A DNA stretch of 64,000 nucleotides from Diplolepis rosae (Eukaryota; Arthropoda; Insecta; Hymenoptera; Diplolepididae). A program made the position numbers and the translations under genes. The stretch covers positions 2,852,001 through 2,916,000 of the forward strand of contig JAPYXD010000704.1 in assembly GCA_030998225.1 (NCBI GenBank), in the 5' to 3' direction. The notes under the pieces are model-generated. The model did no database searches and was not told the origin of the DNA. It saw only the letters and a program-made list of their open reading frames with translations. Shown in pieces: positions 3,432 to 61,351 of this stretch (within the stretch, counting starts at the first letter, position 1; every line of letters begins with the position of its first letter).

Positions 3432-3962
3432 CACTGAGAAGAATTTTTAGTTCGAATAACTAAGAATTGCTCATCATCCCAATTAAAAGAATGTAGTTCG
3501 TTTTGGCGTCAACTAAGTGTTTGTAGTTGGCGCCACTATGTCTTCGTAATTAGCGCAACGATATCTTCGTTGTTAGACTGAGAAAATGTTTAGTTCGAAT
3601 AACTAAGAATTGATCATCATCCCAATTAAAAGAATGTAGTTCGTTGTGGCAATTAACTAAGTTCTTGTAATTGGCGCCACTATGTCTTCGTTGTTAGCAT
3701 AACCATAACATGTACCTTTTTTAAATGAAAAAGCTGATTATATCGAAAAACAACATTTTTCATTTTTATAATAAAGAAGAATTTTGATGCAAATAATTCG
3801 ATTTTCTTAAGGGCAATAAGTTAATAAATAGTGGTGAATGTGAAATGTAATTGAAATAGGAAAAAGTGATTGAAAACAGTCAGAAGTTTGAAGTAATTTT
3901 TTTATTTACAATATCCTGAAGCTTTTTTATAAAAATTATACTATACATGATAAATGTTAGTT

Positions 3963-4532
3963 TTAATAGGAACAAATCACGTAAGACTTATTATTAATTA
4001 TAGATGTAACGTAAGATTTATAAGAACAAAGAGAATGCAAGAAAACGAACTTATGTTCCTTACTATTTGTTATCTCATAAGCTTGGATGTGATCGTCGAA
4101 CGCAGAGCGAATCATCTTAACTTTTATCACAAAGTGCTCTAATTTCGTTCCATCGAAGCTTTCGTTTTTATACAGTGTTTCTATCGTACCAAAAATCGGA
4201 ACATTATTAGTGAGGCCTAAAACTATAATCGAACCACATTGCAACGCGTGATTTTCAACATTAACCTGTTTGATGATCTGAAGCACGGAGTTTTCGAAAT
4301 CAACTTTTAACCTTCCATCACAACGTGATTCTTTATAAGGTTTATAAGATATAGGGATTAACGAAAACATATTATTCAAAAAATATTCGCATAATCCGAG
4401 CTGATGTTTTAGAGCGACACTATAATTCAAATTTTTTCGACTGTGATTAATGTGACAATATTGCTTAAACGAGCGATGTTTTCCTTCGAATCTCATGGCC
4501 CAAATGTTGCGAAGAGGACCTAATAAATACAT
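3963..4532 (-). pseudogene. C-terminal part of a CACTA/EnSpm-like transposase
   Basis: About 190 residues are open on the minus strand. Near the N-terminus is LGPLRNIWAMRFEGKHRSFK, followed by KHQLGLCEYFLNNMF. The pattern GPL..W.MRFE.KH..FK followed by a KHQ/RHQ segment is one I recall from animal transposon proteins tied to EnSpm-like elements; this is memory, not a search. The frame appears to continue a few residues upstream (CHYSYVMYLLGP) and then meets a stop, so most of the protein, including the acidic catalytic residues, is missing. It lies about 530 bases inside the left terminus with its stop pointing to that end, as expected for the last exon of a transposase running inward from the right end. 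Confidence 0.55.
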
Positions 4533-5161
4533 AACGTAGGAATAGTGACAACTGCTTTATGTGCAAGCAAACTTTCCAAGACCTATGAACAGTAATTCGT
4601 GAATGCAAAATTCTAAATAAGAAACAATCACTCCAATTTTGATGCACATACTTCCCCTTCATTTCCAGCACTGTTATGGGTATTTGATGCATCAGTTGCG
4701 TCTGCTTGACTTTCATCCGTACGAAATAAAATTACATTCTCGCAAATGATCCCATCAGACGCTTTTTCAAGCGGGTTTTGTATATGGAATCCTTTCTAGG
4801 ACAAAAATAAAATCCGCAACATCTTATTAAATAAGCAATCGACTGGCAATCGTAAGATCCAGGCTCGTATCCTGGCACAGTGAAACGTGTGATTTTTTTT
4901 AGAGAAAGATTTCAAATTCTTTAATATCTTAAATTTATAAATAATACAACTGATAAATAATGAATAAAAATTAAATAAAGAAAAAAAATGGTTTTAAAAT
5001 ACGCCATTTATCCTTCCGAAGCGGTCTGGGATTTTTATTCTGTGGGTTTTCTATCGTGTAAAAGTGTACGTGGTTGTTTTCTCGTGCCGTTTTTTTTTGG
5101 AAATTTTAATTGATTGTGACACCCACACTTACTTCCGGAGATTTGTGCTGATCAATCACCA

Positions 5162-5358
5162 CACTGAGAAAAAAATTTATCCAACAAAACTTTTTTTGTT
5201 GTCCTGACAAAATATTTTGTTGTCCCAACAAAACATTTTGTTTAAGTAACAAAATTTGATTGAAATAGCAAAATGTTTTGTTGGCACAACAAAAGAATTT
5301 TGTTAGCTAAATACTAACAAAATATTTTTGTTGATTTGACAAAACTGTTTTCTCAGTG
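5162..5358. mobile_element. 197-bp miniature element, CACTGAG ends, CA duplication
   Basis: It begins CACTGAGAAAAAAATTTA and ends CAAAACTGTTTTCTCAGTG. CA flanks both sides. The interior is made of repeated AACAAAAT/ATTTTGTT units in both orientations. It is nested inside the 3432-6982 element. Similar AACAAAA units occur at 22180-22380, 30830-30860 and 53370-53460. Confidence 0.75.
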
Positions 5359-7461
5359 CAGTTGCTCGGGTTCCAACAGAAATTGGTATGCGTGAACTTT
5401 GTTGTCTATTAAAACATGGATTTCAGAATCCGACAGCATGAAAAAATTTGTTTCGTCAACATTAAAATCTGCAAAATAATTATAAAAAATGAAATAAAAG
5501 ATTATAAGAACGAACTCCGTTTTTTCTTGTAACGATTTGTCCTTCGATTTCAAAAAGAATGATTTTTCATTGTTACATCGAGTTTTGCAAGATTGAATAA
5601 AAAAGATTTATTCTAATACTGGAAACAAAATTGTTTTTGAAATAATAAAGAATTATAAAACGTGGGTATACTTTTGAAAACGTCGATATAAGCTGAAATT
5701 TTGAAATTTCGAAGCATGTCTTCCACAAAATTACTCATTATAACAGACGATTTCCATGTAGATCATGCACTGTTGAAAAATAATAAAATCATATTAAAAT
5801 TTTAAAGTATTTACAATATTTACAATATTTACAATTTACTTTATTGTTACTTCCATAAATTTAACAATCCTATCATGTACATTTTTTTGTATATTATTGA
5901 AGAATAAGAATTTTTGGAAATCGATAATGTGGTTTTGAAAGGTATAGCAACTTTTAGAAAGTTATAAAAATAATGCGCGAGGTGAAGCTAAGTCAATTTC
6001 GAAACACACCCTAAAATTCTTTAATATTTTAAAGATACAAAAGCTTCAAAGAAAAAAAAATGAATGTACGTGTTAGTTAATTAATAAAGATATTTCTTCT
6101 ATATTATATTTAGGTTTTGCCGGATACAAAACTGGAAATACTTGAGGTTAAAATTGCGTCGCGTCATCGAAAACTTTATTAACAAATATTTTTTATCACC
6201 CTGTTTTTCACAAAGCATCCATTCAAAACCATCTTAGGCAATGATACGGAGATGCATTTAAGTTAATTGAATAAAAATGTATTATTCCATACTTACGGAA
6301 TATAATCTTGGTCCGCCGTGAAAAAACAGCACTCAAATACATATAAGCCGCTGGTCAAATCACCAAAACAGAATCGCAACGCTGCCAACTTTACGTGGTT
6401 GGCAACAGCTACTCATAAAATTCAAAAATGAACTATTGAAATTTCGATGAACGAATATAATTATAAATACTTTGTATAACTATGATGTAATGCATATCTT
6501 TAGTCAGCATATTTTGATCTGAAAAACCATTGAAAAATTGCAAATAAATTATTATTATTTACAATATGAAACCTGATCGACCTTACAAAGATAATATTAT
6601 GCCATCTTATCTAATCTTCAGGCTTAAACTTTCAAAGTAAATTATAGGTATTTTAAAACAACCATTACTTGGATATAGTTAAAACAATGCAATTTTCACT
6701 GATTGCATTTACTTTGTATATTAATAACGATTACTCTAAGACATTGAATTGAAGTAACTATACTCTTATTGCAACTTCAATTGATTCTTATAAGTTCGCC
6801 AAATAAAAAATTTAGTTGACGCCAAAACGAACTATAAAATGTAGTTGGGCATAACAAATATGCGCCCTTAGTTAGAACAAGCATAAATTGATTTTATCCA
6901 ATCATAAATATAATTTTCTCAACTAAAATTAGTCCAACTATAAAAATATATTTAATTTAGGTACACACGATTTCTCTCAGTGTAAAATTGTAGTTACCTG
7001 AATTTAAATAATTTACATTTAGAACACTTAGATATTGAAAAATTTTAATTTTAAATTACATAATCAGCATGGTACGTCCGCCAGTATAAAATTATTACTA
7101 AACTTTATTTTGCAAATCCGTCTCTCATTTATACCCCAAAGTCATTAATATTAATATAACTACCACTAATTTAAACCTATGTAATACACAAAAATATGTT
7201 TTACGTTGCGTTACTCTCCTAGTGAAAAGGATATTAATACTTTATAATTTTAATATACTTCAATAATAGAAAATAATTCTGATTTAGTGTGTAAATATCC
7301 TCGCGATTATTCAATCAATTGATTTCCGTGTTGTGATCAAAGGAAAAAAGGCATTTAAACTCATTCAAACAGCGTTAATTCACGTGAGATTTATTAAAAT
7401 TTCAATCGCTATGGCAAAAATTAGCTATTAGCAATTTTTCTCTTCTTTTCCGGTCTTTCTT

Positions 7462-8072
7462 CACTGAGAAAACTGGAGTGTCAACCTAAACATTTGGAGG
7501 GTGAAGCAGACTATATTTGAGGTTAAACTATAGGACAGCCTTCTAGATAGTGTAACTTATTACCTGTGAATTGTCAAAATAAGATGGTCAACTTGAATAC
7601 TTTAGAGGGAAAAGTTGATCATCGCAGAGAGAAAAATAGATTATCGAAGAGTGAAAAATATACTATAATCTACCTCTATGGCTAACCTCAAAACTATTAC
7701 ATTTAAGCTTTCACAATTATTATGTTATTATAGCAAGTGAAATAGGTACTCGCCAATTAGTTAGCAAAAATAACCCTCGTGACACTTTAACACGTAAAGG
7801 ACGCGAAACCGGCAATGAGGTTAGAGTCCACGCTGGTGATATTGGAGGAAAAATAGGCGAACCCACGTGACTTTACAATTTTGGCGCGTATTTCGCCAAT
7901 CGACACTCTTTATAGTGATTCTGACACTCTGGTAACAGTTAAGCAGAATATCAAATGAGTGTCTCCCTGACCAAAAAGAAAAAATTTCGGAAAGAGTGTT
8001 GTACTATCTAGAAGTTCAGACTGACTATCTACATTTTGACACTCAAAGTTTGACACTCCAGTTTTCTCAGTG
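7462..8072. mobile_element. 611-bp miniature element, deletion derivative of the SAM-gene element
   Basis: The inverted ends are exact for 23 bases: CACTGAGAAAACTGGAGTGT at the left and its complement at the right. TT flanks both sides. The right 380 bases (about 7690-8072) match, in inverted orientation, the first 410 bases of the larger element at 8878, including the CCTCGTGACACTTT and GATTGGCGAAATACGCGCC blocks. The larger copy has about 54 extra bases between the CCTTTACGT and AGTGTCACGAGG blocks. I infer internal deletion from an element like 8878-16457. Confidence 0.75.
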
Positions 8073-8877: not shown

Positions 8878-11520
8878 CACTGAGAAAACTGGAGTCTGAA
8901 CTTCTACATAGTGCAACACTCTTTCCGAAATTTTTTCTTTTTGGTCAGGGAGACACTCATTTGATATCCTGCTTAACTGTTACCAGAGTGTCAGAATCAC
9001 TATAAAGAGTGTCGATTGGTGAAATGCGCGCCAAAATTGTAAAGTCACGTGGGTTCGCCTATTTTTTCTCCAATATCACCAGCGTGGACTCTAACCTCAT
9101 TGCCGGTTTCGCGTCCTTTACGTTTCAGCTATTTCGTGTGATTTTCGTAATTTTATTTTAATAAATAAGTTCGGACTGCTTTAATAGAAAGTGTCACGAG
9201 GGTTATTTTCGCCAACTAATTGGTAAGTACCTATTTCACTTGCTATAATAACATAATAATTGTGAAAGCTTAAATGTAATAGTTTTGAGATGGATTTTGT
9301 TATTATTCTATCAATAATGTTTTAACTAATATAAATTTGTTTAAAAGGAAAGAAAATGGCTGACAAAAATACGTTTTTGAAGATTATGGAAAGCTGGTAA
9401 TGTGGAGAGACGATAATCAACACATTTCAAGGTATTTTTAGAAATACTATTTTATTCTTAAAGCTTCTTCTGCGTAAAAATATGTGTAGCTGTAATTGCC
9501 TACAATAATTTCAAATTTTATTAGTAATAGGTGCAATCTAACCGTGTTTTTCTATACAGTGCTTATATCACTTCATCTGTACACTTTTATGTAAGATTGT
9601 TTTTAAATACTTTCGAGAGAATATTTTTTGCATTTAGAATATTTAAAAAAATCTTTGTTTTTAACGCAGCGTGGTTATAGGGTGACATTAAACTGCAATT
9701 CTTGAATTTTCGAAGATTCTAAGGAAAAATTTTTGAACTTTGGGAAGCTTTGAGTTCGAAAAGTTCAATTCAGAAATTTTTTAAATTTTAAATAAAGCAA
9801 TGGAAAATTCTATACATCAGACTTTTTATCCCATAGGGACTTTGAGTAATAACTTTGATTAAATCATCGTTTTGCACATAGAGTACTATTCAATTTCAGA
9901 TAACGAGATCGACGTTGAGTCTTTTCTACTTTTAAGTGATCAAGACATTCGTGATATGATTCCACTAGCAGGGTCACGTACTAAATTTGTAAAAAATTAT
10001 GCAGCTCATTTGCAATCGGTATGATATATATTTTCTTTGAAAATAATGAGCTTCAAACTAAAGAAGGGATATGAATTTTAATTATCTTAATAAATTTATT
10101 TGGTAATATTCCTAAATCTATTTCCTTTCTTTTTTCAAGAACCGATTACTATTATTATCTACCGATGTCGAGGTAGAAGAAGGTCCTCCTGTTGCTGAGA
10201 AGTCGAAACTCAGTAATTGCAAACGTCAAGAAACCCATGGAAACATTGTACAATTGAGTTCAAGGGCCAAAAATACTGAATATACTCTACAAAACTCGAC
10301 AGATTTCCAAGAAACTGCACTGTTTCCGAATGCAGGGTTGCCACAAGTTTCAGTATCCTAATTTCCCTGACTTTTCCCTGACTTTTCAAGCTGATTTCCC
10401 TGACCAAAATCTATTGTAAGAGGACTCATCTCGGTGGAACTATGTTCCTATTATATAATATTTGCGTGTTTTTCCCTGTTATTTTTCAACAGAGAGGATG
10501 TTAAATAAGAGAAGGTAAGATAGAAACAACGTATTTCTATTTATTTATTTTTTATCAAAACTTAAAAGGAAACGAACTGGTATGCCATAACTTGCATGTT
10601 GCTATCGAACGTTAAACATAAAAAATGGCATCATAGGAAATTTATAACTTTTTGGTTATATCAATCACAGCGGGGTCAACTTAAAGAGATCAATCTTACA
10701 TATTAGTATTTTCATTGTTTAAACAATTTTCGCATGCTTGACCCCTCAGTGAAAAAATATTTAACATCTTCCGATCTAATTGAGTCTCCACTTTTATTAA
10801 ATATGCGCTAGTTACATTGTGACATAGCGCATATGATACTTCTTTTTCCACATTTTTTCACTGAGGGGGCAAACATGCGAAAATTGCTTAAACAATTAAA
10901 CTACCAATATCTGTAGTTAATTAACAAAATAAAAATTATAAAAATATTTATCTGAAACCTAACGTAATAAGCTAAAAAATGAAACAAACCCGAAATCAAT
11001 TTAATTATTTCAACCGGAGATAATGAATTTTAAGCACAAGAGACTTTAGCATTTTGTCCAATTTTATCAAAAGTTTAAATTAATATATCTCTCAAAAAAA
11101 ATTTTCTTTCGAAAATTCTGATATATGTGTCGATTAAATTAATAAAAAGATGCCACAGAATAAAATTTAAGACTTTTAAAAATGTGAACAATCTTCTTTT
11201 TTTGAAATCCGTACGATTTGCAAAGGAATGTCCTATATAAGTTACAATAAAAGTTTATGTAATATTATTTTTTTTTTAAAGTTCTCATTTCATAATTAGT
11301 TTATACATGCTTGATCTGCAAAATCAATTTGACAGAATAGAGTAATAAAGTTTCGTTGTTCTTACTTCCAAATTACTTTACAGACATTTATTCTTATTAT
11401 AGCTACTTTTCTTTTGAAAAAAAGTATTCCAGCACGTCATCCTTCAAAAATTTTCGCCAATAACAGAGTAAATAACAAATTACCAGTTTTACTGCCTATT
11501 TATCGAATTACGGTAAGAAA

Positions 11521-11720
11521 TTACCAGTGACCAAAAAATGGCGGTATCGGCACATCACTAGTCCAGAAGCAAAGGCCGAACCATGTTTGCCTAGCAAGAG
11601 GAGCACTTACTGTCACATAGCCGTAAGAATGTGAAACCACGCGAGTATACGCAGAACGTGGATGTTTTCGGCCTCCACCACTGACCCGTGTGGATCTGCA
11701 CACAATCAAACTTCGTTCAA
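11521..11720. other. GC-richer block inside the 3.8-kb element
   Basis: This block of about 200 bases is less AT-rich than its surroundings and has no convincing frame. A second GC-richer block with different sequence lies near the right end at 13890-14030. Either could be a leftover from the element's original body. Confidence 0.3.
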
Positions 11721-12120
11721 ACGTGGCGCGAAGCAGAAGACATATTTAAAATGACTAAATAGATAATTTAAGAAATTACCCTCCTTTTTTTGATGTTTTA
11801 AAAGACCTTCACCTAAAATGAATATCTAAAAGATTTTTTTCGAATTTTAGGATGATTTAAACACTTGAGAAAAAAAATGTTCAGTAAAATGTATAATTCA
11901 ATAAATGTTAAAAGCTTCAAAACAAAATATAGATTTATATATTTTTTAGTATTGTAAATAAACTATTTAAAATGAAAAATTATGCCTAAAATACTTTATA
12001 TTAAAATGTTATAAATATAAAAAACATAAATTGTATTTAAATTTACACACAAAATTAGACAATAAGATTTTTTTGATAGAAAGCAACATGAAAAAACATT
12101 AAATTCCAATAAAATATTCT

Positions 12121-13885
12121 TTAAAGTTTTTGAAATATGTAACATTTTTTATGAAATGTCGTTTTCGAATCCCAAGTGCGAATAAAAGGTTTCATTGTTT
12201 GAAAAGAAATCATGCCTAAATTTGGATACGAAATTACATCATAAGATTTCTCTGCTGTGAAGGAAAGTTGAAGAATATTTCGTTCAAATAAAGTGCTTCG
12301 AAACAAATTTTTTAATATATATTTTATTATATTTTTTCAATATATTAGTGTAAATAAAGGGTTAAAATATTTAATAAATATATACATATACACTATATTT
12401 AAATATGCATACAAAATAAAACTGAAATTTCTTTGGTATGAAGCAAAATTATTAATTATTTAACGCACTTTTTTGAATGATAGTTTTATCGATAAACATT
12501 ACGGAAATCCCTGTTAAAATTAACATTTTGAAGAAAATTTCTTATTTTATCAGTTTAACAGGCATTCCTTAGCGAATTTATAAGTTGCACATCAGAAAAA
12601 ATTTTAGTAAAATTTACAGGAAGTTCAATACTTATTTTTACAAATTGAATTTTGAGTAGATATATTACCAGAAATCTGGTGCAATGAACAGTTTTTTTGT
12701 ACAGTCCACTTAACTTCCAGTGAAATCTACCAAACTTGATTTTTTTCGTATCTGATAGATTTCACTGCATGCTAAGGGAAACGTACAGAAAATATGTATA
12801 CATGCACATGCATCAACTTTTGTTTCCAAAATTTTGGAAATGGTAAAGAAGATAGAAACGGTCATAGATAGACTACTTTTGGTTTTGACAAAGAAACAAA
12901 ATTTTCTGATACATATTTTTTTTTAATTTAAGTTTTTTTAATTTCGAAACCGCAGTAGTATATCTACGTCCGTTTTTATCGTCTTTATCATTTCGCAAAT
13001 TTTGAGCAGAAAATACCTAGCTCTTAAATACTTCAATACATTTCCTAAAAAGCTATTTTTTTCCATTCTATAGAGTTTTTGAATTTTCAAATTAAGAGTC
13101 TCTGCATATACAACAAAAACACAATATTTATTTTAAACTTGAACCTCATATTTATTGTAAAACACAATTTTGTGCATAATTTTTAAATTACAATAATAGA
13201 TTTAAAAGATACACAAAGTTTAAATCGATATATATTTTTTTAATTATTAACATTTATTGACTTTCAAATGTTAATGCAAAATCATATTTCAAGTGTCTAA
13301 ATCATTCTAAAAATTTAACAAAATTTTTCAGGTATTTTTTTTGGGCAAATATTTTTCAAAATATATGAAATCAAATAATTTAAGTTATTATTAAATAATT
13401 TAAATTTAAATTAAATATTCCATAAATAATGAATTGGCGTGTCTTTTGCGCTTTTTTTGCGTGGAGTCAGGAAAAACATACATAATTTTACTGAGTCAAC
13501 AATTTTAAATAGTTATAGCACAAAATTTTTGCAAATTTAGTAGATATTTTAATACAATTCACCGCTTTTTGGAAAGTATAATACATTTGCTGATAATCAT
13601 TACCAAAATGCCAGTAAAATTAATAAAATAAGCAATTATCTTCAAAATGTTGATTTTAACAGGCATTTCCGTAATATTTATCGACAAAACTATTATTTAA
13701 ACAAAATTTGTTTCGAAGCATTTTATTCAAACGAAACAGTCTTCAACTTTACTTTATAGCAGAGAAATCTCATGATGTAATTTCGTATCCAAATTTAGGC
13801 ATGATTTTTTTTTAAACAATGACACCTTTTATTCGCATTTGGGATTCGAAAACGACATTTCATAAAAAATGTTACATATTTCAGT
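12121..13885. repeat. Foldback-like inverted repeat, arms about 190 bases plus inner arms
   Basis: The arm at about 12125-12310 (GAAATATGTAACATTTTTTA, CCCAAGTGCGAATAAAAGG, TTTGGATACGAAATTACATC) recurs inverted at about 13700-13885. A second inner pair (TTAACATTTTGAAGA near 12520, TCTTCAAAATGTTGATTTTAA near 13640) follows. The unit could be a long-TIR element nested in the 3.8-kb element, or part of its own structure. No coding frame is present. Confidence 0.6.
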
Positions 13886-14700
13886 CAGTTCCACGATCTG
13901 AGAACACTTTTGCTAGCCTGTGTCTGCTGCGGCGAGTTAACCGAGCAAGAAGGAAGAAGAGTTGGAAAAACTGACCGCGGCACAGTGAAACGCAGTAACG
14001 CACGATCTGGCCACAGCGATTCCCTGACTAAACCTTAAATTCCCTGACTTTTCCCTGACTTTTCCAGACCACTACGATTTCCCTGACTTTTCCCTGACTT
14101 CCCTGACTTGTGGCAACCCTGGAATGTATGTAAAGTATCTTATTCGAGATATTTGATTGATTATATTTCCCATATTTTTCATAGTTACAAGTTTCAAGTT
14201 TGAAAATTATTGACAGGGTTTGAAAACTTATCTTGCCACAAATTATGAAGGTCGTCTTGCTTTAAAGTCTGGACAACATTTAAACAAATCATGTCGGATG
14301 CACTTGGCACGATCTGTTGTCGAATACCTGTTTCAGAATTATTCACATACAAATGTGTAAGTTATATGTTTATTTATTTTACAATAAATTCCATATTGCA
14401 ACATCAGAGTGGATTCTAGACTCGAAAACTGGGAATCTGTCGAGACCGAAATAGAGTGAGAAGTGGCAGTGAATTTAAGTGAATTTCTTTTCAAGTTGAG
14501 ATATTTTCTAATGTTTAATTGAAAAATGGATTTCATTTTTAGTATAACTTGATGTCATATGCAATTTCTGTTGAATGCGAATCCACATCTTTTAAAATTT
14601 CTAATGTTGAATTTCGGATTCTAATTTATTTAATTTAGAGGACTGTAATGCTTCGAAATTTTTTATTATTAAACATTTAAATTATTGGATCTATAACTTA

Positions 14701-15744
14701 ATTCGTGCGGTTTGCTAAGAGATGGCGTAACTTGATTATTATTCCATCGTTCCAATAATCCGAACATGAGTTGGAAAGCTACTGTCATTGTGCGTCTTTT
14801 TCAGTATATGTCATTCATTTGAAGCGTAAACAACAATAATTTTTTTTCACTCAAATATGTCGAACTTTGTGCCTGAAAAAGTGTTTTTGCGCGGAGTTCT
14901 TCTTCATTACTTTAATATGAAGAAAACTGCTGCCGAAAGTCATCGTATTTTGGTGGAAGTTTATGGTGAACATGCTCTAGCTGAGTGAACATGCCAAAAG
15001 CGGTTTGCACGATTTAAAAGTGGTGAAATTGGCTTGGAAGACGAAGAACGTTCTGGGCAGCCAAACAAGTTTGAAGATGATGAACTAGAAGCATTACTCG
15101 ATAAACATTGTTGCCAAACACAAGAAGAGCTCGCAGAATCTTTGGGAGTCACTCAAGCAGCCATTTCAAAACGTTTAAAAGTAGCCGGATACATTCAAAA
15201 GCAAGGAAATTGGGTTCCAAATGAACTCAAGCCGAGAGACGTTGAAAGGCGGTTTTGCATGTCCGAAATGCTGCTGGAATGCCACAAGAAGAAGAAGTCA
15301 TTTTTGCATCGGATTGTTACTGGTGATGAAAAATGGACCCATTACGATAACCCCAAGCGCAAAAAATTATATGTGAAACCCGGCCAACGATCCAAATCAA
15401 CGGCAAAGTCGAATATCCATGGCGCGAAGGTAATGCTCTGTATTTGGTGGGATCAGAAGGGTGTTATATTATTATAGCCCAGACCTTGCCCCTTCAGACT
15501 ACATTTTGTTCCGGTCGATGCAGAACGCCCTCACTGGAATACGGTTCACATCAGAACAGGGTATTAAAAATTGGCTTGATTCATTCTTGGCCTCCAAGCC
15601 GGCGCAGTTCTTTTGGGATGGAATCCACAAATTGACAGAAAAATAGGAAAAAGTCATAGCTTCAGATGGGCAATACTTTGAACAATACTATTGAACATGT
15701 TTTTCTTAAATAAACGTTCAAATTTTGAAAAAAAACGCACGAAT
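14701..15744 (+). mobile_element. Mariner element, 1044 bp, TA duplication
   Basis: The left end is ATTCGTGCGGTTTGCTAAG after TA (14699-14700). The right end is TTTGAAAAAAAACGCACGAAT before TA (15745-15746). It sits in an intron of the SAM-domain gene. It is shorter than a full mariner because about 240 bases of the catalytic region are deleted. Confidence 0.85.
14857..15694 (+). pseudogene. Mariner transposase with internal deletion and stops
   Basis: It starts at ATG 14857 (MSNFVPEKVFLRGVLLHYFN). A TGA interrupts the N-terminal domain after GEHALAE. The frame then runs from 15034 through DEERSGQPNKF, the second helix-turn-helix (QEELAESLGVTQAAISKRL), the WVPNELKP linker and VTGDEKWTHYDNPKRK, which carries the first catalytic aspartate. 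The motif CIWWDQKG is followed directly by YYSPDLAPSDYILFRSMQ, so the segment with the second aspartate (HDNARPH-type) has been deleted with a frame change. The C-terminus ends SDGQYFEQYY with a further TAG where the family has tryptophan. It is inactive. Confidence 0.9.
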
Positions 15745-16511
15745 TAAGTTATGGATCCAATACAGTTTCTTGATTTTGAAATGTTACAATTTTGCAGATT
15801 CTGATGTCATTGTGCAAACTCCACAATCTGCAGCAGCTTTCCAGTATTTACGGAATAACGTGGGTACTTATGAAGAACAGACAGATAATTGGAGACAGTG
15901 TTTACGAGAACATGTAGCTTACCTAGAAGCTCATTCTGTATATGAATATTTACTTCTCTTTCCTGCATTGAGAGTTCAATACGGCCATAAATTGTTATAC
16001 AAGATTTCGATGACATTTACCCAGAAAAGAAAAATGCTCTATATTCTGTTTGGCAACATCTAGCATTAGCGATTTTAAAAATCGCTGTTGGTAAAGGAGA
16101 TTTGTGCGAAAGTGTACCGGAAGACGTGAACGGTATGTAAATTTCTTATTTTGTACTGTTTCAAAATTTTTATTTACATAAAATTTCTTTTAAAATGATT
16201 AAAATTCCTTGATGAAGTTCGAAATATGTAATAAGTACTTGAAGTATTAATTGGTCAAATCCTCAATTCTTGATTTAAAATGTAATCCGCTGCAATTGTT
16301 TCAACTTTCTACATGCAGATCCCCAATCTTAAGGCTTGCATGTGAATCATTTATTGAATTCTCATTCTAGATCTGGAAAGATAGACTCGTTTAGGAATGA
16401 AGTCCGAAATGATAGCAGTGAAAGCGAAGACTTTGAAACCCATTTTTCACCGTGTAGGTATATACTCTCGGTGATTATCTATTTTTCCCCGTGCGTAAAT
16501 TGTTATAGTAT

Positions 16512-19884: not shown

Positions 19885-21346
19885 CACATTTTTACATTCT
19901 CATCATGGATGAGAAGGTATTGGTTTTATGTGAAAAATGACTTTCGAAATTTTCATCAAATCTTTACGTTTTGAGACCCCCTGAGTCAGAAAAAAGGATT
20001 TTTACGAAAGTGTCTGTCTGTCTGTCTGTCTGTAGGTCGTGTGCGGCATAACTCTCGATAGAATTATCAGATTGAATTGAGCTTTGGTACACTTTATTGG
20101 AGCCGAAAAAGTAAGGACAAGTTCGTTAACCAGCCACATCCAATCAAAATTGAGGGGTTGAGCACTACTTTTGTGTTTTTGAAAATAATTTTTTGAAAAA
20201 ATCAAAAATTTCAATACTGGTTTTAGATAGTGCTCATAATGCTCTAAAAATTATCCTGATAATATTTTTTGATTAAATCAAAATTAGAAAAGTTACAGCA
20301 TATTCAAATTCGAAAAAAGTCAATATCAAAATTCCATTTTCCAGTTAAATTATACGAGATACGAAAAAACGTTATGATACAATATTATTTTCTACATAAA
20401 GTCCTACAAATTTTAATTGTAACATTCTTTCATAAGATGCATATTTTTCTTTTTAATTAAAAAAAAAAATATTGAAAATCCAAAATTTAATTTTTTAACA
20501 ATAATATTCGAAATACGAAAAAAACGTTAGAATACAAAGTTTGTTGTTTCAAAAATATCTACAAATTTTGTCTCACACAGTTTCTGATAAAACATATATT
20601 TTTCGTTTCAATTCCAAAAAATACGATTAAAATTCAAAAATTCCATTTTTTAGACAAAATATGTGAGATACAAAAAAAACTTTGAGATGAAAAATTGTTT
20701 GGCTAAATAAGGTCTACACATTCTGGTCGAGAAATTTCTCGACAGGATGTATATTTTAATTTTTTGATTTTTAATATTGAAAAAATTCGATTTTTTTCAC
20801 CAAAATATGTGAGATACGAAATAAGCGTTGTTCTGCAAAATCGTTTCCTTAAATAAAGTCTACGATTGTTTTTCCTTTTTAGATATGTGGAAGAAAGTAA
20901 ATTCTTTTAATCATGTAATTTATTAAAAAGTTATACTGAAATGTATACAGAAAATCGAGCGCGAAGCGCGAGCGCCACGATGAGAATGTGTTCCTTAAGG
21001 CTGATAGAGCCTTAAGTAAATTGAATTTCCTGTTTCACTTAAATTCAAAAAGAAATTGAGTGACTTTGAGAAAATGTGTAATTCACATCATCTGTAATAT
21101 TATTATAAAATTGGTTTGAGCTTCAGTATCAAATTATAATAAATAAACTTGAATGTATGTGAAGAGCACATGAACGAGCGCGAAGCGCGAGGTCCAGAAA
21201 GAACGGAGCGCGAAGCGCGACGTTCAAAAATTCTGGAGCGCGCAGCGCGACGATCGAGCGTACGGAGCGCGACGATCAAATCGCGCGCTCAAACTTGCGA
21301 GCGAAGCGCGCAATGAGAATGTGCCCGCGAAGCGGGCAGATTTTTT
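19885..21346 (+). repeat. Interspersed repeat family with GCGAAGC hairpins, copy 1
   Basis: It starts ACATTCTCATCATGGATGAG and contains a (TGTC)n microsatellite (20012-20035), GAATTGAGCTTTGG, and GGAGCCGAAAAAGTAAGGAC. It then has several diverged 130-base AT-rich units with GAGATACGAAAAAA. The 3' end is a GC-rich hairpin cluster finishing GCCCGCGAAGCGGGC before a T-run. Other copies are at 24806-25505, 55214-55690, 34340-34490 (3' end only) and, inverted, 36625-38215 and 51640-52010. It has no protein and no clear duplication. The 3' hairpin followed by T could fit a Helitron-like or Pol III end, but neither is proven. Confidence 0.65.
20951..21346 (+). repeat. Cluster of GCGAAGC mini-hairpins
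   Basis: GCGAAGC occurs at 20961, 21180, 21210, 21301 and 21327, each embedded in longer self-complementary contexts (AGCGCGAAGCGCGA; GCCCGCGAAGCGGGC). A variant GCGCAGC is at 21240. Another exact copy is at 25420, and a decayed one (GCGAAGT) at 34463. The d(GCGAAGC) sequence is known to form an unusually stable single-stranded DNA hairpin with a GAA loop. Confidence 0.75.
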
Positions 21347-21479
21347 TATTAAATTCAATATAAAAGTATATTAAATCATTTGTGTATACAGTATATTGAA
21401 TTTAATATACTTTCAAGTGTTGATAAAAAAAGGATATTTTCTAGATTTTATTGGTAACTTGTAAATCATTCAAACTGCC

Positions 21480-34339: not shown

Positions 34340-34500
34340 CGTCTTCGGACGTAACACTCTCGTAAAATTGGCTTGAGCTTCAGTATCAAATTACAAGAAA
34401 TAAACTTGAATCTATGCAAAGAATATAAGATCGAGCGCGATGGGCGCGATGATAATGTGCCCGCGAAGTGAGCAGATTTTTTTGTGTGCAATTTAGAGCC
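34340..34500 (+). repeat. 3' end of the GCGAAGC hairpin repeat
   Basis: GCTTGAGCTTCAGTATCAAA to CAGATTTTTTTGT matches 21108-21346. The hairpin core has decayed to GCCCGCGAAGTGAGC. Confidence 0.6.
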
Positions 34501-34557: not shown

Positions 34558-34624
34558 CTTGAAAGTTGCTGATCACGTATTCGTCATATCCCCACTTCTT
34601 TAAAAGTTCACTAATTTCACTCAT
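34558..34624 (-). pseudogene. First exon of a second SAM-domain gene, fragment
   Basis: From ATG at 34624 the minus strand encodes MSEISELLKKWGYDEYVISN followed by FQ and one extra base. This is the first part of a SAM domain. It aligns with exon 1 of the gene at 9356 (FLKIMESW.CGETIINTFQ) and ends in the same phase (CAAG). The base after the exon is not GT, so the donor and all later exons are lost. The start lies 495 bases inside an element end at 35119, against 478 in the other copy. Confidence 0.6.
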
Positions 34625-35119
34625 GGTAAAATTTATACAATCCAATAAAGCTATTTTTTTTACATAAACCAGTTCTTCCGTAAAACGTGCTCGCGGAAAC
34701 ATGCAATAACAAGTATGGACCTTCTTCTTTTGTTTCTGTGCAGAAGAGGCTGCGCAAACATTGTTTCTTGTAAGCCATGGTTTTTACGCAAGCGCAGAAT
34801 AGAAAACGCGGTATTCTTAAGAGTCGTTAGCAACTACAGTCAACTTAAATATATGTCACCGCAAAAGTGTAATAGCCATGAGTGTGAATCTTTAGATTCA
34901 CTAGGAGAACTAATAGTTTTAGCAGTGAAAAACAACTGATTTGATGCAGCGCTTAATACGTTAGGGACATAGAGCAAATTTTCAGCTTGCATTACGGCCA
35001 ATATATTCTAGCTGACCTAGCAAACTGTTTCTTCTCTCTGCGTACTTTTTATCAGTTACAGTTAACTAGTTGACAGCTAACTTTAATTAGCAACTACAGC
35101 CATTTCATTTTTTTCCGTG
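34558..35119 (-). mobile_element. CACGGA-ended transposon end with SAM-gene exon
   Basis: Read on the minus strand it begins CACGGAAAAAAATGAAATGG at 35119 and leads to the SAM first exon. TAGCAACTACAG occurs near both 34830 and 35090, a subterminal repeat. The other end is missing, replaced by the hairpin repeat at 34340-34500. Confidence 0.45.
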
Positions 35120-36624: not shown

Positions 36625-38215
36625 TTGTAGATTCAGGCGAATAATTTTCCATCGTAACGTTTTTTTTCGTCTCTCCCATATTTTGTTTTAAAAATGAAAT
36701 TTTAACATTTTAATCGTATTTTTTTGAATTAAAATGAAAAATATATGTTTTATCAGAAACTATGTAAGTCAAAATTTGTAGATCTTATTAAAATGAACAA
36801 TTTTGCAAACTTACGTTTTCTTCGTATTTTACATATTACACTGAGAGATTTTTCGTCAGAATAAATCGTAAAAGTGAATCATATTTTAGTATAATATCGT
36901 TTCAAAGTGAGGCAAGCAGGGTTTACATATCAAAAATTAATATAGTGGTTTTCAAGGGGCAAATTGATATTTTCGTTTGTATAAATGGAATATAAGTTTT
37001 ACTATCTGTTACAAAACCGACGAGAATTTGAAATTCACTATATTAAAGTTGCGAAGCGAATTTAAAGTGGTGTTAATACATTTTATTCGAAAGACTGAAA
37101 GAATCTTTTCAAATTTTCAAACAAAGAATATGGGAATCTGAAAACCACTATATGAAAAATCACTCACTCCATCAAAAGGTTTGACCTTTAGTAGTGACGG
37201 CTTCAGAAAAGGAATTCTTGTGTCTTTTTCTGATGCGACATTCTGAAACACATACACAAATATTATTATCATACCTTATTTATGTTCACATATTTAAGTA
37301 CGCAATAATACACTATTTTATAATAACATACTTGAATTGAATTTCAGAATCGCTTTTTGGGTTCGAACCCTCTAACCCTACCTATATTTACATAACTAAA
37401 CGCATGTCTAACGCCTAAAGCCTCTCGGCTATTCTCGCAGCTCGCTTGCCATTTTCCGAAAGAAATATCGCTTATAGGCCACTACTGAGTTGGGCAGACT
37501 TGGATTGAGTCTACGAAGCCAATCGGAAGCACTCGTACTGCATTCTGAAACGAATTATACGAAAAACCGAGAATAAACATTTTGATTTTTGCTGCGCGTC
37601 GCCAGATTTCTAGCAAGTTCATATTCATAATATGAATTTCTCAAACATGCTTTCCAAAATGTGATATTTATTGTGCATCTTATTCAAATTATTTTTAGAC
37701 ATCTTAGTAATCATAATATCATTTTCTCGTACTTTCAATTCCTCGAATAGAGATTGATAATATTTAGTATTTAAAATACTACTTTATCTTCTTCATGTAT
37801 TAAAGACCGTTATGACTATATCAAACTTCGATGTCATAATATGAATAAGTCTAATAAAGCCTCGGCTTTCCCCATTTTGAAACGATATTATACTAAATTT
37901 TGATTCATCTTTATCATTTACTCTAACGAAAAGTCTCTCACTGTATTGTTAAAAAATTGAATTTTCAATTTACAATGGTATTTTTTTTAATTAAAAAGAA
38001 AAATATACATCTTATAAAAGTATGTAGCGATTCAAATTTTGTATATCTTTTTGTAGTAAACAATTTCGTATGATAAAGTTTTTTCGTATCTCGTATAATT
38101 AAAATGGAAAATGGAATTTAGATATTGATTTTTTATATTTCAACATGTACTGTAACTTTCTTAATTTTAGTTTAATCAAAAAATGTTATTTATGGATCTA
38201 GTTTATAAATTTAAA
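36625..38215 (-). repeat. Inverted copy of the hairpin repeat, split by an insertion
   Basis: 36625-36836 and 37946-38215 are reverse complements of the AT-rich 130-base units in copy 1 (TTCGTATTTTACATAT, AAAATTTGTAGATCTT, TTTAATTAAAAAGAAAAATA). The split is made by the CACTGAG element at 36839-37943. The short frames at 36344-36617 fall in this repeat and are not genes. Confidence 0.6.
36839..37943. mobile_element. CACTGAGAGA-ended element, short copy, TA duplication
   Basis: It starts CACTGAGAGATTTTTCGTCA and ends CGAAAAGTCTCTCACTG, with inverted similarity for about 75 bases (ATTTTAGTATAATATCGTTT against AACGATATTATACTAAATTT). TA flanks both sides. The same family is present in a longer form at 45352-48848, sharing the subterminal GGATTGAGTCTACGAAGCCA block. 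Confidence 0.75.
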
Positions 38216-38307: not shown

Positions 38308-39458
38308 CACGGAAAAAATAAGTACTGGGAAATTTACTTGACAGTCCTCAACTTTTGGACAGGACAAATTTTTCCGAAGATCCTATATACTTTTTATTAA
38401 GAAGCTTAGAACTTCATCAAAAAAAAGAAATAATGTCCTAGATTAATTCAAGCACAGTCAATGAATGAAATTCTTTCAAATTTTATTGTATAGTTTTTGA
38501 AAAAATTATAGAAAGGCAAATAATACTTCTTCTAAAGAGTGCTTCACGTTTTAAAAGAGTTTGGATAGAATAATTTGATTAGGAAGAGATGAATACCTGC
38601 TATACAAATCAAAGAAAAATTCTTGGACTGCGCTTGAAAGTCTTGTGAAATTTTTAGTGGTACGATTCGCAGTTGTCAATGTCAGTTTTTTAGATACGCA
38701 AAATTTTTATTACTTTGTAAATTGACATAAACTTCAGAAATTATGAAATTCTTATATTCGATATTTTAGAATTCAGTAACTAATTTATTAAAAGTCTCTT
38801 TATCTAAAAACTTTTCTTAGCCTTATATAAAATTTATGGCGAAACAAGGTGCAGCAATTTATTACACGGCCCTGCATTTTCAAAGGATAAAATGTACCCA
38901 ACACTTTTGGAGAAGTATCGCAAATGCTTCGGTAGCCGTGCGGTTTAATTTATAAGGTTAGACTGCGTTATAGATGTAGGTTAGGTAAAAGTTAAGGTTC
39001 GAATCCTATCAGCGTAATATTAATTTCAACAGCGGTAATATAATTTGTAATAAAAATCAATAAAATAGTATATAAAAAAAAGGACAGCTCGCGAAAATAA
39101 TTTTTGTTTCTTATTGCCTTTGATAGTCCATAAAAATTTCATTGACTGGCTTTGAAGTTTTCATACACGAATGCTGTGCGAGCTCTATCTGCCTATATTC
39201 AGAATTTCATATTAATTCGTAAAAATATCCAATCTTTGAACTTTATTTTCTCAAATGATTCATAGACATTATACATTTTGCGTACTCAGAATTTTCACGG
39301 ACTTTCTACTGAATATACTTTTGAAAAGTTCTATACTTTTTCCAGGATTATTGATCTAATTGTACAAGAACGGTACTTCTAGTTTTAAGTAACTTTTGAA
39401 CGTATCTGAAAGTCGAGCACTCTGTCATGTAAATTTCCCAGTACTTATTTTTTCCGTG
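38308..39458. mobile_element. CACGGAAAAAATAAGTACTG-ended element, TA duplication
   Basis: Inverted ends match over 37 bases with one mismatch (CACGGAAAAAATAAGTACTG at the left; the complement ends at 39458). TA flanks both sides. The interior is AT-rich and non-coding except for a tRNA-like block at 38927-39014. Confidence 0.8.
38927..39014 (+). pseudogene. Degenerate tRNA-Leu/Ser-like sequence
   Basis: GGTAGCCGTGCGGTTTAA resembles the D-arm and A box of class II tRNAs (GRTGGCCGAGTGGTTAAG). GGTTCGAATCC about 65 bases on is an exact B box. The T stem and acceptor stem do not pair well, so it is a pseudogene or a tRNA-derived module in the element. Confidence 0.35.
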
Positions 39459-41912: not shown

Positions 41913-42828
41913 CACGGAGAAAAATGGATATTGAAAAGTAGATATTCAAATAGGAAATAATTCATCCATAATATCTAGATATTGACACGCAATATTAAAA
42001 TTTTTTTTTCAATATATAAGATTTTGCCGAGAAGTAACATTTGATATTCAGATTCAATAGTTTAGATATTGAAGCATGAAGTGCGCGCGCATATATATAA
42101 AGGTTATGTGATCACTTTTTCGCTCTCATCGAAATCTAAGTGAATCTAAGATTGACATGCTTGCAGCGTTCCGGAAAGATAAATTTTAAAAGTTTACTAC
42201 AGTTTACTTAAATTCTAATAAGTGTTTCTAATGGAGTAAAAGTGATCGGGTCATTAACTTGAGATGCAGTAATATATTTTCTCTATATGTGGTTTATAGC
42301 CGAAAATGAAATCCAACCTTAGTGTTAAGTTTAAGTTTCTAACAAGAACATTAAATTAATTTTAGACATGCCAGATAATGAAAATTTGGTTCAAACATCT
42401 ACATTACTTTTACAGAAAAGAACATAATAAAATATAATTTGACTTTTTTCTAAAAACTGAATATGTAGTTATTTTATAACCTTTAAAATAATTTTTTGAG
42501 TATCTTAGATATTGATCTGATGTAACATCTATAACTTACATTTCCAGTATACCTGATATTGATGTTAAATATCTGAGATAGTCAACTCTAGTACCTCAGG
42601 CATTCAAGTTTACTAACGAGGATATTCAGAAGTTTTGTATCTCGAATATTCATTCTTAATATCTGAGATAATCAAGTTCAATATCTGAGATACTGGTGGT
42701 TAATATCTCTTTTTCAATATCTGCAGGCATTGAAGTAGAATATCTAAATGTTTGTCACATAGTTGAATGCTACTGACATTGTGCCTCAATATCTAGATAT
42801 TATGGGTCAATATCCATTTTTCTCCGTG
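41913..42828. mobile_element. CACGGAGAAAAATGGATATT-ended element
   Basis: The 22-base ends are exact inverted copies. The interior is full of GATATTGA/TCAATATC and ATATCTGAGATA units in both orientations, a dense subterminal repeat array. The flanks are TA and TC, so no clean duplication remains. Non-coding. Confidence 0.75.
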
Positions 42829-45300: not shown

Positions 45301-45351
45301 TCGAGTAAACATTTCATATTGTTGAGATGTATTAATAGGGGATGGTATCCA

Positions 45352-48300
45352 CACTGAGAGATTTTTCGTTAAAGTAAATCATAAAAATGAATTATATTTT
45401 AGTATAATATTGTTTTAAAATGAAGAAAACAGGGTTTACGTATCAGATATTAATAAAGTGGTTTTCAGGCGGTAAAGTTGATATTTGTTCCAAAAATGAG
45501 GATATAAGAAAAATTCATTAGAAATTACGGACTTACTCGTTTAGAAATATTATAGAACATTTTGTAGAAGAATTAAGAATAATTTTGTAAAAATTCCCGA
45601 ACTGTGCAGTAATATTCTTAACGAGAATCTATTGAAAATTTCCAGAAATCAGTGAAGCACAAATTATATTAGTAGTCTCTGAAACTTTACGGGTTTATGT
45701 ATGGGGAAAATCCCACTCTTAACAACAGTAGAAATTTCGGTGTAGTTCGGGAAAATTTCTAGAATTCAGTTCAGTAATGATTCAGTGATCGTTATAGATT
45801 TCATGGGTCTTTACGGTGAGAATCCCACCGAGTTTGGGAAAAGTTCCAGTCATGTTTGCCTTCATGCTTGTTACGTCGAAAAAAATCTAAGATGAATGCC
45901 GTTGGAAACACTGAGACAAAGACGTATCTATTTTGTTCCATGTTGACAACGGCAATCCATCTTCCCTTTTTAGTATTCACAAGGATGAAATCAGAGAACT
46001 TAGAGAATATTTAAGCTGAAATTAAAATTAATTTTTTAAAGTTTAAAATGTAGAATGAAACAACTTTTGTGTAGCAACGTGTTAAACGTTTTTATTTTCG
46101 AACTCAAAAGTATTACATCCATAGCTTTGCTATGTAATTATAACTGTCGCTTAATTTATTACAAATAGTGACGATTGTATTTGAAGTGAGATCTTTAACC
46201 TTTAAAATGCTATACAAATACAATGAAGTTTCATCGAAAATTTTGATGCTTGTAAGTGTTCATTAAAGAAACAGTCCTCAAGCTTTTTCGAAATGATTTG
46301 GAAATTATTCCCGGATATCAGAATTTTTTGCACGAGGTAAAATTGTGGGCCGCTTTCTCAAAAAATCGTTACGACGCTGTAGCAACATGTGCTATGCGAT
46401 AGCATAACCTCTCTTACTGCTAGTAGTGCTCTAAGTCTTAGATTTAATTTCAGTCGTTATACTTGAACGAGACGATTCAAGCCAGTAAAAAATGGCATGC
46501 CCATGCAATAATTATTAAATATGTAATATAGAAAAGTACTTATTCAATGCAGTTTTCTTTGGTCGACATTATATTTCCGGTAACGCAATTTCATACTTTA
46601 CACTATATATATAACAGCTAACAGAGCAAATGCCGGTCCGCGGCGAGGTGCTGCACAATGACGTTTGCGCATTCTCTTTTATTTCACAGTTCAGGAATTT
46701 TTACAGACTGACAACCGTAATTCTCGCGGTGAATGAATTATGAAAATTTATTTTAGAAGAGCTATAAATTTCCCTGAGGCGTTTTGTAAGAAATATCGTA
46801 CTATTTTATATTTTATCTCAAAGACATTCCTAATATTCGAATAAAAGCTTTACTGCACAGTTCAGTAACTATATTGGAACCATTCGAGTTATTTCACTGA
46901 AAAATCATTGAAAATGATATCCTCAATTTTTTAACAATTCTGGAATTCTTCAAGAATAAATTTTTTCCGTGTGAGCTACTCATGGAGAATAGACAGAAGG
47001 AGACCAATTTCTTATGCATGAACTAGAGATCGAGCACGTTTTTGTCGGAAGTACATGGAAAAGGTACAAGAACTTCCCAATTGATGACGCTAATGCTAGT
47101 GGTGTTAAAAAATGCCCGCTCCTTCTGGTTACTCATCATCCTCATCATATTCTAACATAACCGCAAATTAAAGTAAATATTTGTAAACATTTATATCGAA
47201 TAATTTGAACAAACATTGTTTATCAGAAATGATCAAGTCATTCTTTAATATATATATCAATATATATTAAAGGTTAGATTTTGCCGAAAATGTCTCAAAT
47301 TATTGAAGAAATTAAAAATAGAAAAATATTTCCATAAATATATTACTTACCTGCTGCATTATAATATTATTTTTACATTTAAGTAAATTTAATATACAAT
47401 GATTAGTAATAATTAATTAATATCACCATGGAGACTATTCTCCATTAATATCACATAAATGATTCAAAGAAGAGTTCATTTTCTTACCCTACTTGCAGGA
47501 GCGCCATCTCTTGGGAAGTTGCTGTACTCAATCGATATATTTCCGACAAAAACATGCTCATTTTCAGTTACATTGGTTTGGTCTTCTTTTGTCTATTCTC
47601 CATGAAGCTAATACCAAGTTGGACAAACTTGGATCGAGTCTACGAAACCAATCGGAAAACGACGGAAGCACTCGAATGACATTTTGAAACGAATCGTATG
47701 GAAAACAGAGAATGAATTTTTCGATTTTTGCTGGGCGTCGCTAGGTTTCTAGCAAGTTCATATTCATAATATTGTATGAATTTATCAACTATGCTTTCTG
47801 GATCATTATAGTAGAATTATTTTTAGACAACTTCGTACTCATAATATCACTTTTTCGTACTCTTAATTTTTCGATTCACGTGAAAAACGAAACAAAAGAA
47901 TTGATTCTGCAAGAATCGATCGAAAAAATCGAAATTTTTTTTACTACTGTATTTCTCTTTTAAATATTTTTTTGATACCTAATTATTTCTTTTGCAATCC
48001 TTGGTTTAGTCGTCTTTCCCAAATGAAAGCACAAGAATCTATTCGTAAAAAATATTTCTTTTCTTACAGTTATAAATTCATAATATTGATATCCCTGGCG
48101 AAAGTATCGGATAGAAAAGTAGCGTATTGTAATAGACGCATGCGAAGTTAAAATGTATAAGGCTTTTTCAGTACGGTGCGAACGTTGTACGAAGAGAATA
48201 TTACGCTCCGCTGTATCATAATGGGCGCATGCGCAGTTCAATTTTTATACTACATCCCTCTGTATCGTAATACACAACATTACGCTACTCTCAACTGTAG

Positions 48301-57310: not shown

Positions 57311-57677
57311 AATAGACGATTTTCTGTTTTTTCTTCATTTTGTAGGCATAGCCAGCTTATATTACGTGTGTGTACCAAGTATCAAACGGGGTTTTTCAGT
57401 TTTCATGTATAGTATTGAAAATAATCACCAGATGAAAAAATAGCATTTTGAAAAATTAATTTTTTAACTTTTAAAATTTTTATCCACTGGGATTTTTTAT
57501 TATTATTGTTCAAACAAATTTCTTAAATCTCGGGGTGGGCGATCGTCTCAATTGCCCTTTAGTACGTGGGTTAATTGAAAAGTGACGAGAATTTTGTAAT
57601 GGCATGCACTGTATCTTCTCAATTGATTTGATTTTTTTCCTGTACGTAGGCAGTTCTGTCAATGATGTACGTTTCAA
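57311..57677. other. Spacer; no gene
   Basis: Nothing recognised before the CACAGG terminus at 57681. Confidence 0.3.
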
Positions 57678-57680
57678 TTA

Positions 57681-58171
57681 CACAGGCACACAAAAAAAAC
57701 CAAGTCTCTGATATTTGAACGCGACACATATGTTCCCATGTAATTTGATCCGCTGATCACGAATCCGCGGTCCAATTGACCCCATGACATCTGGGTCAAG
57801 GGCATTTGAAGGTCAAAATTGAACACACACATTTGAGTTGAAAAAAATGACTAATCTTTATGTTTTTTGGGTCGCTGAATAATAATTCGAGGTCGGTTTG
57901 ACCTCAAGTAGTAAAGGTCAAGGTCATTTGAAGGTCAAACGTGTTTATTTTGGAAATAATGCATTTTTGACTGCAGATTCTGAAAGAACGGAAAATTTTA
58001 CGTCCAAAACTGTATTTTGTAATTTTTTTAATATGATCCAAAGGTCATTTCAAGGTTATTATAAGTGGTGATGTGGAGAATCAATTTAATCACTGCAAAA
58101 ATACGAAAATATGGTTCCCTTCACCTAAACTATTGCGGCAATATATTTTGGTGATCGTTGAACCAGAATAC
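57681..58171 (+). repeat. Left long terminal inverted repeat
   Basis: It is rich in AGGTCA half-sites, including AAAGGTCAAGGTCATTTGAA near 57918 and TTTGACCTCAAG. Its partner is 60579-61072. Confidence 0.85.
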
Positions 58172-58262
58172 AAGGTTCGTCTGTCTCCTCAAGGACAAGA
58201 TAAGGGTCGCCCCATCAAGGTAAAAAAAGAACTGAATCTCTGCAGAACTATAAATATGAGAC

Positions 58263-60224: not shown

Positions 60225-60578
60225 GACGGCGTCATGCCTTCACCCCAGGGCTTAGCCGGAAAACAAACAAGAAAAACAAAGCCGTTTCCGCCGTCACCAC
60301 GTGGAGGTGCCCTGGGTGCTGACACAAGATAGGTATTACTGATAGATACTACTCCGTTCTTTCAGAATCTGGAGTCAAAAATGCAGTTTCTTTTCAAAAT
60401 AAACAAGTTTGACCTTAAAATGACCTTGACCTTCACAGCTTGAGATCAAACCGACCTCAAATTCGAATTCAGCGAACCAAAAAACATAATGATAAGTAGT
60501 TTATTCCACTAAAACGATATTTTTCCCAATTTCGACCTTCAAATGCCCTTGACCCAGGTGTGATGGGGTCAAAAAGAC

Positions 60579-61072
60579 CTCGTATTCTGATCCAGCAACC
60601 ACCAAAATATATTACCACAGTAGTTTAGGTAAAGGAAATCATATTTTCGTATTTTTGCAGTGATTAAATTGATTCTCCACATCACCACTTATAATATCCT
60701 TGAAATGACCTTTGGATCATATTAAAAAAATTAAAAAATACAGTTTTGGACGTAAAATTTTCCGTTCTTTCAGAATCTGCAGTCAAAAATGCATTATTTC
60801 CAAAATAAACACGTTTGACCTTCAAATGACCTTGACCTTTACTACTTGAGGTCAAACCGACCTCGAATTATTATTCAGCGACCCAAAAAACATAAAGATT
60901 AGTCATTTTTTTCAACTCAAATGTGTGTGTTCAATTTTGACCTTCAAATGCCCTTGACCCAGATGTCATGGGGTCAATTGGACCGCGGATTCGTGATCAG
61001 CGGATCAAATTACATGGGAACATATGTGTCGCGTTCAAATATCAGAGACTTGGTTTTTTTTGTGTGCCTGTG
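60579..61072 (-). repeat. Right long terminal inverted repeat
   Basis: Inverted partner of 57681-58171, ending GGTTTTTTTTGTGTGCCTGTG less its outermost bases. It contains TTTGACCTTCAAATGACCTT and GACCTTTACTACTTGAGGTC. Confidence 0.85.
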
Positions 61073-61138
61073 TTATCAGCCTGCTGTGACGCATAATTTA
61101 TGTTTAGCGAGCGAAAAAGCAAAACGTACTTACGTGTG

Positions 61139-61351
61139 CACGGAGAGAAAATTCCAGGAAAAATTACCGTGATTGTCCGATAAAGAGGGTGCGAAGAACA
61201 TTTCAACCGAATATTGTAGTGCTTTCCTTTTTTCTTTAAAAGAAGTTCATGAATTTTCAAGAGAGAGCACGAGAAAATTCCCTAAACTGCGCGGCAAGCA
61301 CCCTCTTTATCGGACAAGCACGGTTATTTTTCCTGGAATTTTCTCTCCGTG
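61139..61351. mobile_element. 213-bp miniature element, CACGGAGAGAAA ends, TG duplication
   Basis: The arms are 54 bases with two mismatches (CACGGAGAGAAAATTCCAGG; TCCGATAAAGAGGGTGC at the inner edge). TG flanks both sides. It is inserted just upstream of the coding remnant of a mariner. Confidence 0.85.

What the first reader, a model, noticed from the sequence alone, without database searches (positions are those of the whole stretch)
34558..35119. A second SAM first exon at the same distance from a CACGG element end
The minus strand shows an element end (CACGGAAAAAAATGAAATGG) 495 bases before an ATG. The exon there, MSEISELLKKWGYDEYVISN followed by FQ, ends in the same splice phase as exon 1 of the gene at 9356, which sits 478 bases from its end. 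Two independent, diverged copies with the same architecture make chance adjacency unlikely and support a conserved accessory gene of the superfamily.
Basis: partly seen in the sequence, partly recalled or inferred. Interest (0 to 1): 0.75.

Follow-up and report, generated by a model that had tools for sequence, protein, structure and literature searches.

The report
Decayed SAM exon in CACTA-like transposon
A short leftover of what looks like a jumping-gene helper gene, carrying the first half of a SAM protein-interaction domain, lies beside a CACTA-like transposon end; a better preserved neighbour in the same DNA suggests that such transposons carry this helper gene as cargo.

Summary
The letters are as reported: minus-strand CACGGAAAAAAATGAAATGG at 35119, ATG 495 nt inward at 34624, MSEISELLKKWGYDEYVISNFQ. 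Such ends are real: 20 strict ones against a mean of 1.7 in shuffles. The peptide is probably a real SAM first exon: similarity to the 9356 exon alone is weak (17 of 200 shuffled windows do as well), but none of 200 does with a donor-like site of 8 of 9 positions. That donor has lost its GT, so 'same splice phase' is inferred. No later exon was found, and a dispersed repeat begins 75 nt on. The 9356 gene is broken too.

Its first exon lies 1,244 nt from the end, so the 478/495 distance is no rule.

Best reading: a relic of an SAM accessory gene of CACTA-like transposons. Function is inferred. The window's own genome could not be searched, so all rests on three copies in 64 kb.

The parts
35100..35119 (-). 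copy C: CACTA-like element end CACGGAAAAAAATGAAATGG, preceded by TA
   Evidence: strict end class 20 vs mean 1.7 in shuffles
34827..35102 (-). copy C: 16-nt motif twice (34827-34842, 35087-35102, 94%), possible subterminal repeat
   Evidence: exact direct repeats of 13 or more are common in this window, 55 of 424 stretches
34558..34624 (-). copy C: decayed SAM-type exon 1, 67 nt, donor without GT
34363..34483 (.). dispersed repeat (copies at 21106-21189 and 21301-21347) that begins 75 nt past the exon
8878..8897 (+). copy A: element end CACTGAGAAAACTGGAGTCT
9356..9431 (+). copy A: SAM exon 1, phase 1, in-frame stop
9900..10018 (+). copy A: SAM exon 2
10140..10332 (+). copy A: exon 3, interrupted by an insert 10333-14121
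14217..14354 (+). copy A: exon 4 (3' limit approximate)
15798..16133 (+). copy A: exon 5 (limits approximate), frameshifted
3432..6982 (-). element B, 3,551 nt, CACTGAGA ends, TA on both sides
5672..5738 (-). copy B: SAM-type exon 1, 67 nt, phase 1, GT present
5133..5468 (-). copy B: exon 2, with a 197-nt element (5162-5358, CA on both sides) nested in it
4652..4795 (-). copy B: exon 3
3963..4553 (-). copy B: transposase-like C-terminal remnant, in another frame than exon 4 (from 4582)
   Evidence: no Pfam match
7462..8072 (.). non-autonomous element that shares 96-97% of copy A's 5' region, TT on both sides

Best explanation
34624-34558 is the decayed first exon of an accessory gene carried by a family of CACTA-like (CMCT-type) DNA transposons, and 35119 is the 5' end of that copy. 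Exon 1 encodes the first helices of a SAM domain, a phase-1 intron follows, exon 2 completes the domain, and further exons and then a transposase gene follow on the same strand. Shown here: the excess of CAC(T/G)GA ends, 2-bp duplications, the exon order in copies A and B, and a transposase-like remnant downstream of the SAM-type exons in B. Inferred: that C once had the rest; that the remnant is a transposase; and that the SAM protein oligomerises and holds the subterminal regions together for the transposase, as TNPA is thought to do in En/Spm.
For: End class in excess, 20 vs 1.7. C exon: 67 nt as in B, best of 703 ATG peptides against A, donor-like site 8 of 9, and 0 of 200 shuffles match both. 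SAM_1 rises from 14.1 bits (A exon 2 alone) to 26.0 with C and 30.3 with B in front; 5 of 5 decoys 15.5-21.0. A and B align in register across the exon junction, 1 of 5000 shuffles as good. Element B holds SAM-type exons and a transposase-like remnant between ends flanked by TA, with a 29-nt inverted subterminal repeat at 93%.
Against: C has no GT, no exon 2 and no found partner end; 30750 and 30878 lack a matching duplication. C's peptide alone gives no SAM match, C in front of B's exon 2 gives none, C ranks 7 of 703 against B's exon, and its match to A alone is reached in 17 of 200 shuffles. B's own two exons give no SAM match and BLASTP aligns A and B out of register at E 0.014. C's first 495 nt shares no more words with A or B than random stretches do.
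Confidence: 0.7

Rival explanations
1. Chance: a short random reading frame that happens to look like a SAM first exon, next to one of many CACTA-like ends.
For: Peptide similarity alone is reached in 17 of 200 shuffled windows; C alone has no SAM match; no GT and no exon 2; the window holds 20 strict ends.
Against: 0 of 200 shuffles reach both the peptide score and the donor-like site, 1 of 200 with a looser peptide score of 20; SAM_1 26.0 bits against 15.5-21.0 for 5 decoys.
Confidence: 0.17
2. The SAM domain is the N-terminal part of the transposase itself, or of one alternatively spliced gene, not a separate accessory gene.
For: In B the SAM-type exons and the remnant lie on one strand with no end or promoter shown between them; in soybean Tgmt* one gene gives both functions (PMC2613891, passages).
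Against: In B exon 4 and the remnant are in different frames, though a deletion seems to join them, so this says little.
Confidence: 0.3
3. A host SAM gene beside which or into which elements inserted, with its first exon carried along or copied.
For: Copies A and C have no second end found; SAM domains are common in animal proteins (recalled).
Against: Copy B lies between ends flanked by TA with a shared inverted subterminal repeat; three diverged copies in 64 kb, all broken.
Confidence: 0.1

Closest known systems
[quoted passage not shown]
   Same: CAC...GTG ends; 2-bp duplications within the 2-5 bp given for the group (PMC12730594, passages); subterminal repeats in copy B
   Different: CAC(T/G)GA ends; the catalytic part of the transposase was not found in the window; no SAM gene of the group turned up in the paper searches
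TNPA of maize En/Spm
   Same: a second function encoded in the same element as the transposase (PMC2613891, passages)
   Different: no sequence relation was tested or is claimed; SAM domain here; binding to subterminal repeats not tested
SAM domain (Pfam PF00536; bicaudal C 1 and ANKS6 by sequence)
   Same: 26.0 bits for C exon plus A exon 2; PDB 4rqm at E 2.3e-05 for that chimera
   Different: these are chimeras of two copies; no copy in the window passes the cut-off on its own letters
ESTA elements of rust fungi
   Same: EnSpm-like with 2-bp duplications
   Different: ESTA use TA; here TA, TT, CA and TG; no sequence comparison made

Membership tests
EnSpm/CACTA (CMCT) DNA transposons | ends CA(C)...(G)TG | tested here: met
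   20 strict ends vs mean 1.7, maximum 4 of 100 shuffles
EnSpm/CACTA (CMCT) DNA transposons | target duplication of 2-5 bp | tested here: met
   Of 49 inward pairs under 6 kb, a 2-bp match in 9 of 17 with at least 15 of 25 end letters alike (pairs overlap and compete) and in 3 of 32 others; base expectation 8%. Copy C has no partner end, so it was not tested for C
EnSpm/CACTA (CMCT) DNA transposons | DDE/D transposase with C(2)C and H(3-4)H motifs | not testable with these tools
   only a C-terminal remnant is in the window, without Pfam match
EnSpm/CACTA (CMCT) DNA transposons | subterminal repeats | tested here: inconclusive
   B: 29-nt inverted (93%) and 66-nt direct (95%) repeats. C: a 16-mer twice, but 55 of 424 stretches of the window hold exact direct repeats of 13 or more
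SAM domain (PF00536) | Pfam gathering score of 23 bits | tested here: inconclusive
   Copy A with X at its stop 17.8; C exon + A exon 2 26.0; B exon + A exon 2 30.3; B's own exons none; C + B exon 2 none; C alone none
TNPA-like accessory protein | binds subterminal repeats and is needed for transposition | not testable with these tools
   inference only

The most novel reading that the evidence does not exclude
A whole lineage of animal CACTA-like transposons carries a conserved multi-exon SAM-domain gene upstream of the transposase, a functional analogue of plant TNPA that arose separately, in which SAM polymerisation pairs the element ends; many uncharacterised SAM genes of such genomes would then be transposon genes.
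Probability: 0.4. Interest if true: 0.65.

Novelty: new variant of a known kind. Interest (0 to 1): 0.42.

Why it matters
If the SAM gene is standard cargo of CACTA-like elements, many uncharacterised SAM genes in such genomes are transposon genes, and animal elements have their own answer to plant TNPA. How CMCT-type transposases bring their two ends together would become testable with a domain of known polymerising behaviour (recalled). The finding itself, a 67-nt relic, only points to this.

Tried and rejected
Partner end of 35119: 30750 and 30878 fail on the 2-bp match; 23686 has TA in front but lies 11.4 kb off and shares little past the first letters, unlikely but not excluded. Partner of 8878: 17345 has matching flanks but sits beside stretches repeated at 54-57 kb, so I set it aside. 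The word CAACTACA (4 of 5 occurrences in the subterminal parts of B and C) was chosen after the fact, and overall word sharing is not above random.

Database work: one relative of A exon 3, none for the SAM chimera, two for the transposase-like remnant; no relative of the remnant in viral or prokaryote contigs. Six combined SAM or sterile alpha motif with transposon terms and two CACTA with animal or accessory terms; judged by the listings, none is about a SAM gene in a DNA transposon. Two papers were seen as passages only. The organism is not known; arthropod is a guess from content.

The pair 58091/60662 lies inside the arms of a longer element and is counted in the 9 of 17. Copy B came to light through a hit of E 2.1 to the recalled SAM consensus; its case rests on the later calls.

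Full report
What is there. On the minus strand CACGGAAAAAAATGAAATGG begins at 35119, an ATG at 34624, and the frame reads MSEISELLKKWGYDEYVISNFQ, then AELQF and a stop. No GT follows; AAGCTGAGT agrees with the textbook donor (recalled) at 8 of 9 positions. The phase claim holds only for a supposed ancestor.

Are the ends real? CAC(T/G)GA(G/A)AAA occurs 20 times on both strands, against a mean of 1.7 and a maximum of 4 in 100 order-2 shuffles; the CACGGA form 13 times against 0.46. With one mismatch allowed the excess is weaker, 48 against 19.9. Pairs facing inward with similar ends tend to share 2 bp outside: 61139-61351 TG, 38308-39458 TA, 7462-8072 TT, 5162-5358 CA; 41913-42828 does not. Over all 49 inward pairs under 6 kb, 9 of 17 with at least 15 of 25 end letters alike match, against 3 of 32 others; pairs overlap and compete. 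The window is rich in non-autonomous CACTA-like elements, and 35119 is very likely such an end, although no partner was found.

Is the exon real? C is the best of 703 ATG peptides against the 9356 exon (33, next 27) but only seventh against the exon of copy B. In 200 shuffled windows 17 reach 33 against the 9356 exon; with a donor-like site of at least 8 of 9 positions, none does, and with a looser peptide score of 20, one does. SAM_1 gives 14.1 bits for exon 2 of copy A alone, 15.5-21.0 with five decoy peptides in front, 26.0 with C and 30.3 with copy B's exon; the cut-off is 23. C alone, and C in front of B's exon 2, give no SAM match. I take the exon as probable, not proven.

Copy A (9356). 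Exons 9356-9431, 9900-10018 and 10140-10332, then a 3,789-nt insert with CAGGGTTGCCAC ends and a GAATG duplication, then about 14217-14354 and 15798-16133, with a mariner-like stretch between the last two. It has an in-frame stop and a frameshift; as typed with X at the stop it scores 17.8 bits, under the SAM cut-off. P0001 matches its exon 3 (87%) and runs on into sequence found here beyond the insert at 14123-14200. A neighbouring 611-nt element (7462-8072) shares 96-97% of A's 5' region.

Copy B, not in the finding. On the minus strand: exon 1 at 5738-5672 (67 nt, phase 1, GT present), exon 2 at 5468-5133 with a 197-nt element nested in it, exon 3 at 4795-4652, and a fourth from 4582 that runs, in another frame, into a 189-aa reading frame. 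P0002 (98%) and P0003 (84% over 51%) are relatives of that frame. Calling it a transposase remnant rests on my recollection of such insect proteins and its place in the element; Pfam has no match. The ends at 6982 and 3432 have TA on both sides, and a 29-nt inverted subterminal repeat at 93% joins them. Exons 1-2 of A and B align in register across the junction, with 1 of 5000 shuffles as good, though BLASTP prefers another register at E 0.014, and B's own letters give no SAM match.

Of 20 strict ends, two have a SAM exon within 600 nt, the two of the finding, whose own exons were among the queries; the best score at the other 18 is 24. Copy B's exon lies 1,244 nt from a one-mismatch end. A random position has a strict same-strand end within 500 nt 7.5% of the time, so two of two would be about 0.6% if independent; a one-mismatch end within 1,250 nt is common (39%) and says little. 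The distance is not constant.

Downstream of C no exon like those of A or B was found, and a dispersed repeat with copies at 21106-21189 and 21301-21347 begins at 34483. C is a relic.

Function. SAM domains often polymerise (recalled). In En/Spm, TNPA recognises subterminal repeats and both TNPA and TNPD are required (PMC2613891, passages). I propose that the SAM protein plays that part here. No call tests it.

Limits. The window's own genome could not be searched, so all rests on 64 kb and three broken copies.

Noticed in passing
3432-6982: CACTA-like element with SAM-type exons and a transposase-like remnant on one strand, with a second element nested in exon 2.
   Followed up: yes
57677-61076: 500-nt inverted arms (97%) around a 653-aa reading frame (58263-60224, minus) with no Pfam match above cut-off; looks like a long-armed transposon.
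   Followed up: partly
10333-14121: 3,789-nt insert with CAGGGTTGCCAC ends and a 5-bp GAATG duplication in exon 3 of copy A, hAT5-like by those features.
   Followed up: partly
15034-15477 and 33330-33020: mariner-like stretches; the first has Transposase_1 (PF01359), the second was recognised by eye only.
   Followed up: partly
39912: The fifth window copy of CAACTACA, the other four being in the subterminal parts of B and C.
   Followed up: no
36838-36963 and 45351-45476: Two same-orientation copies (85%) whose letters start CACTGAGAGATTTTTCGT, perhaps another CAC-ended family.
   Followed up: no
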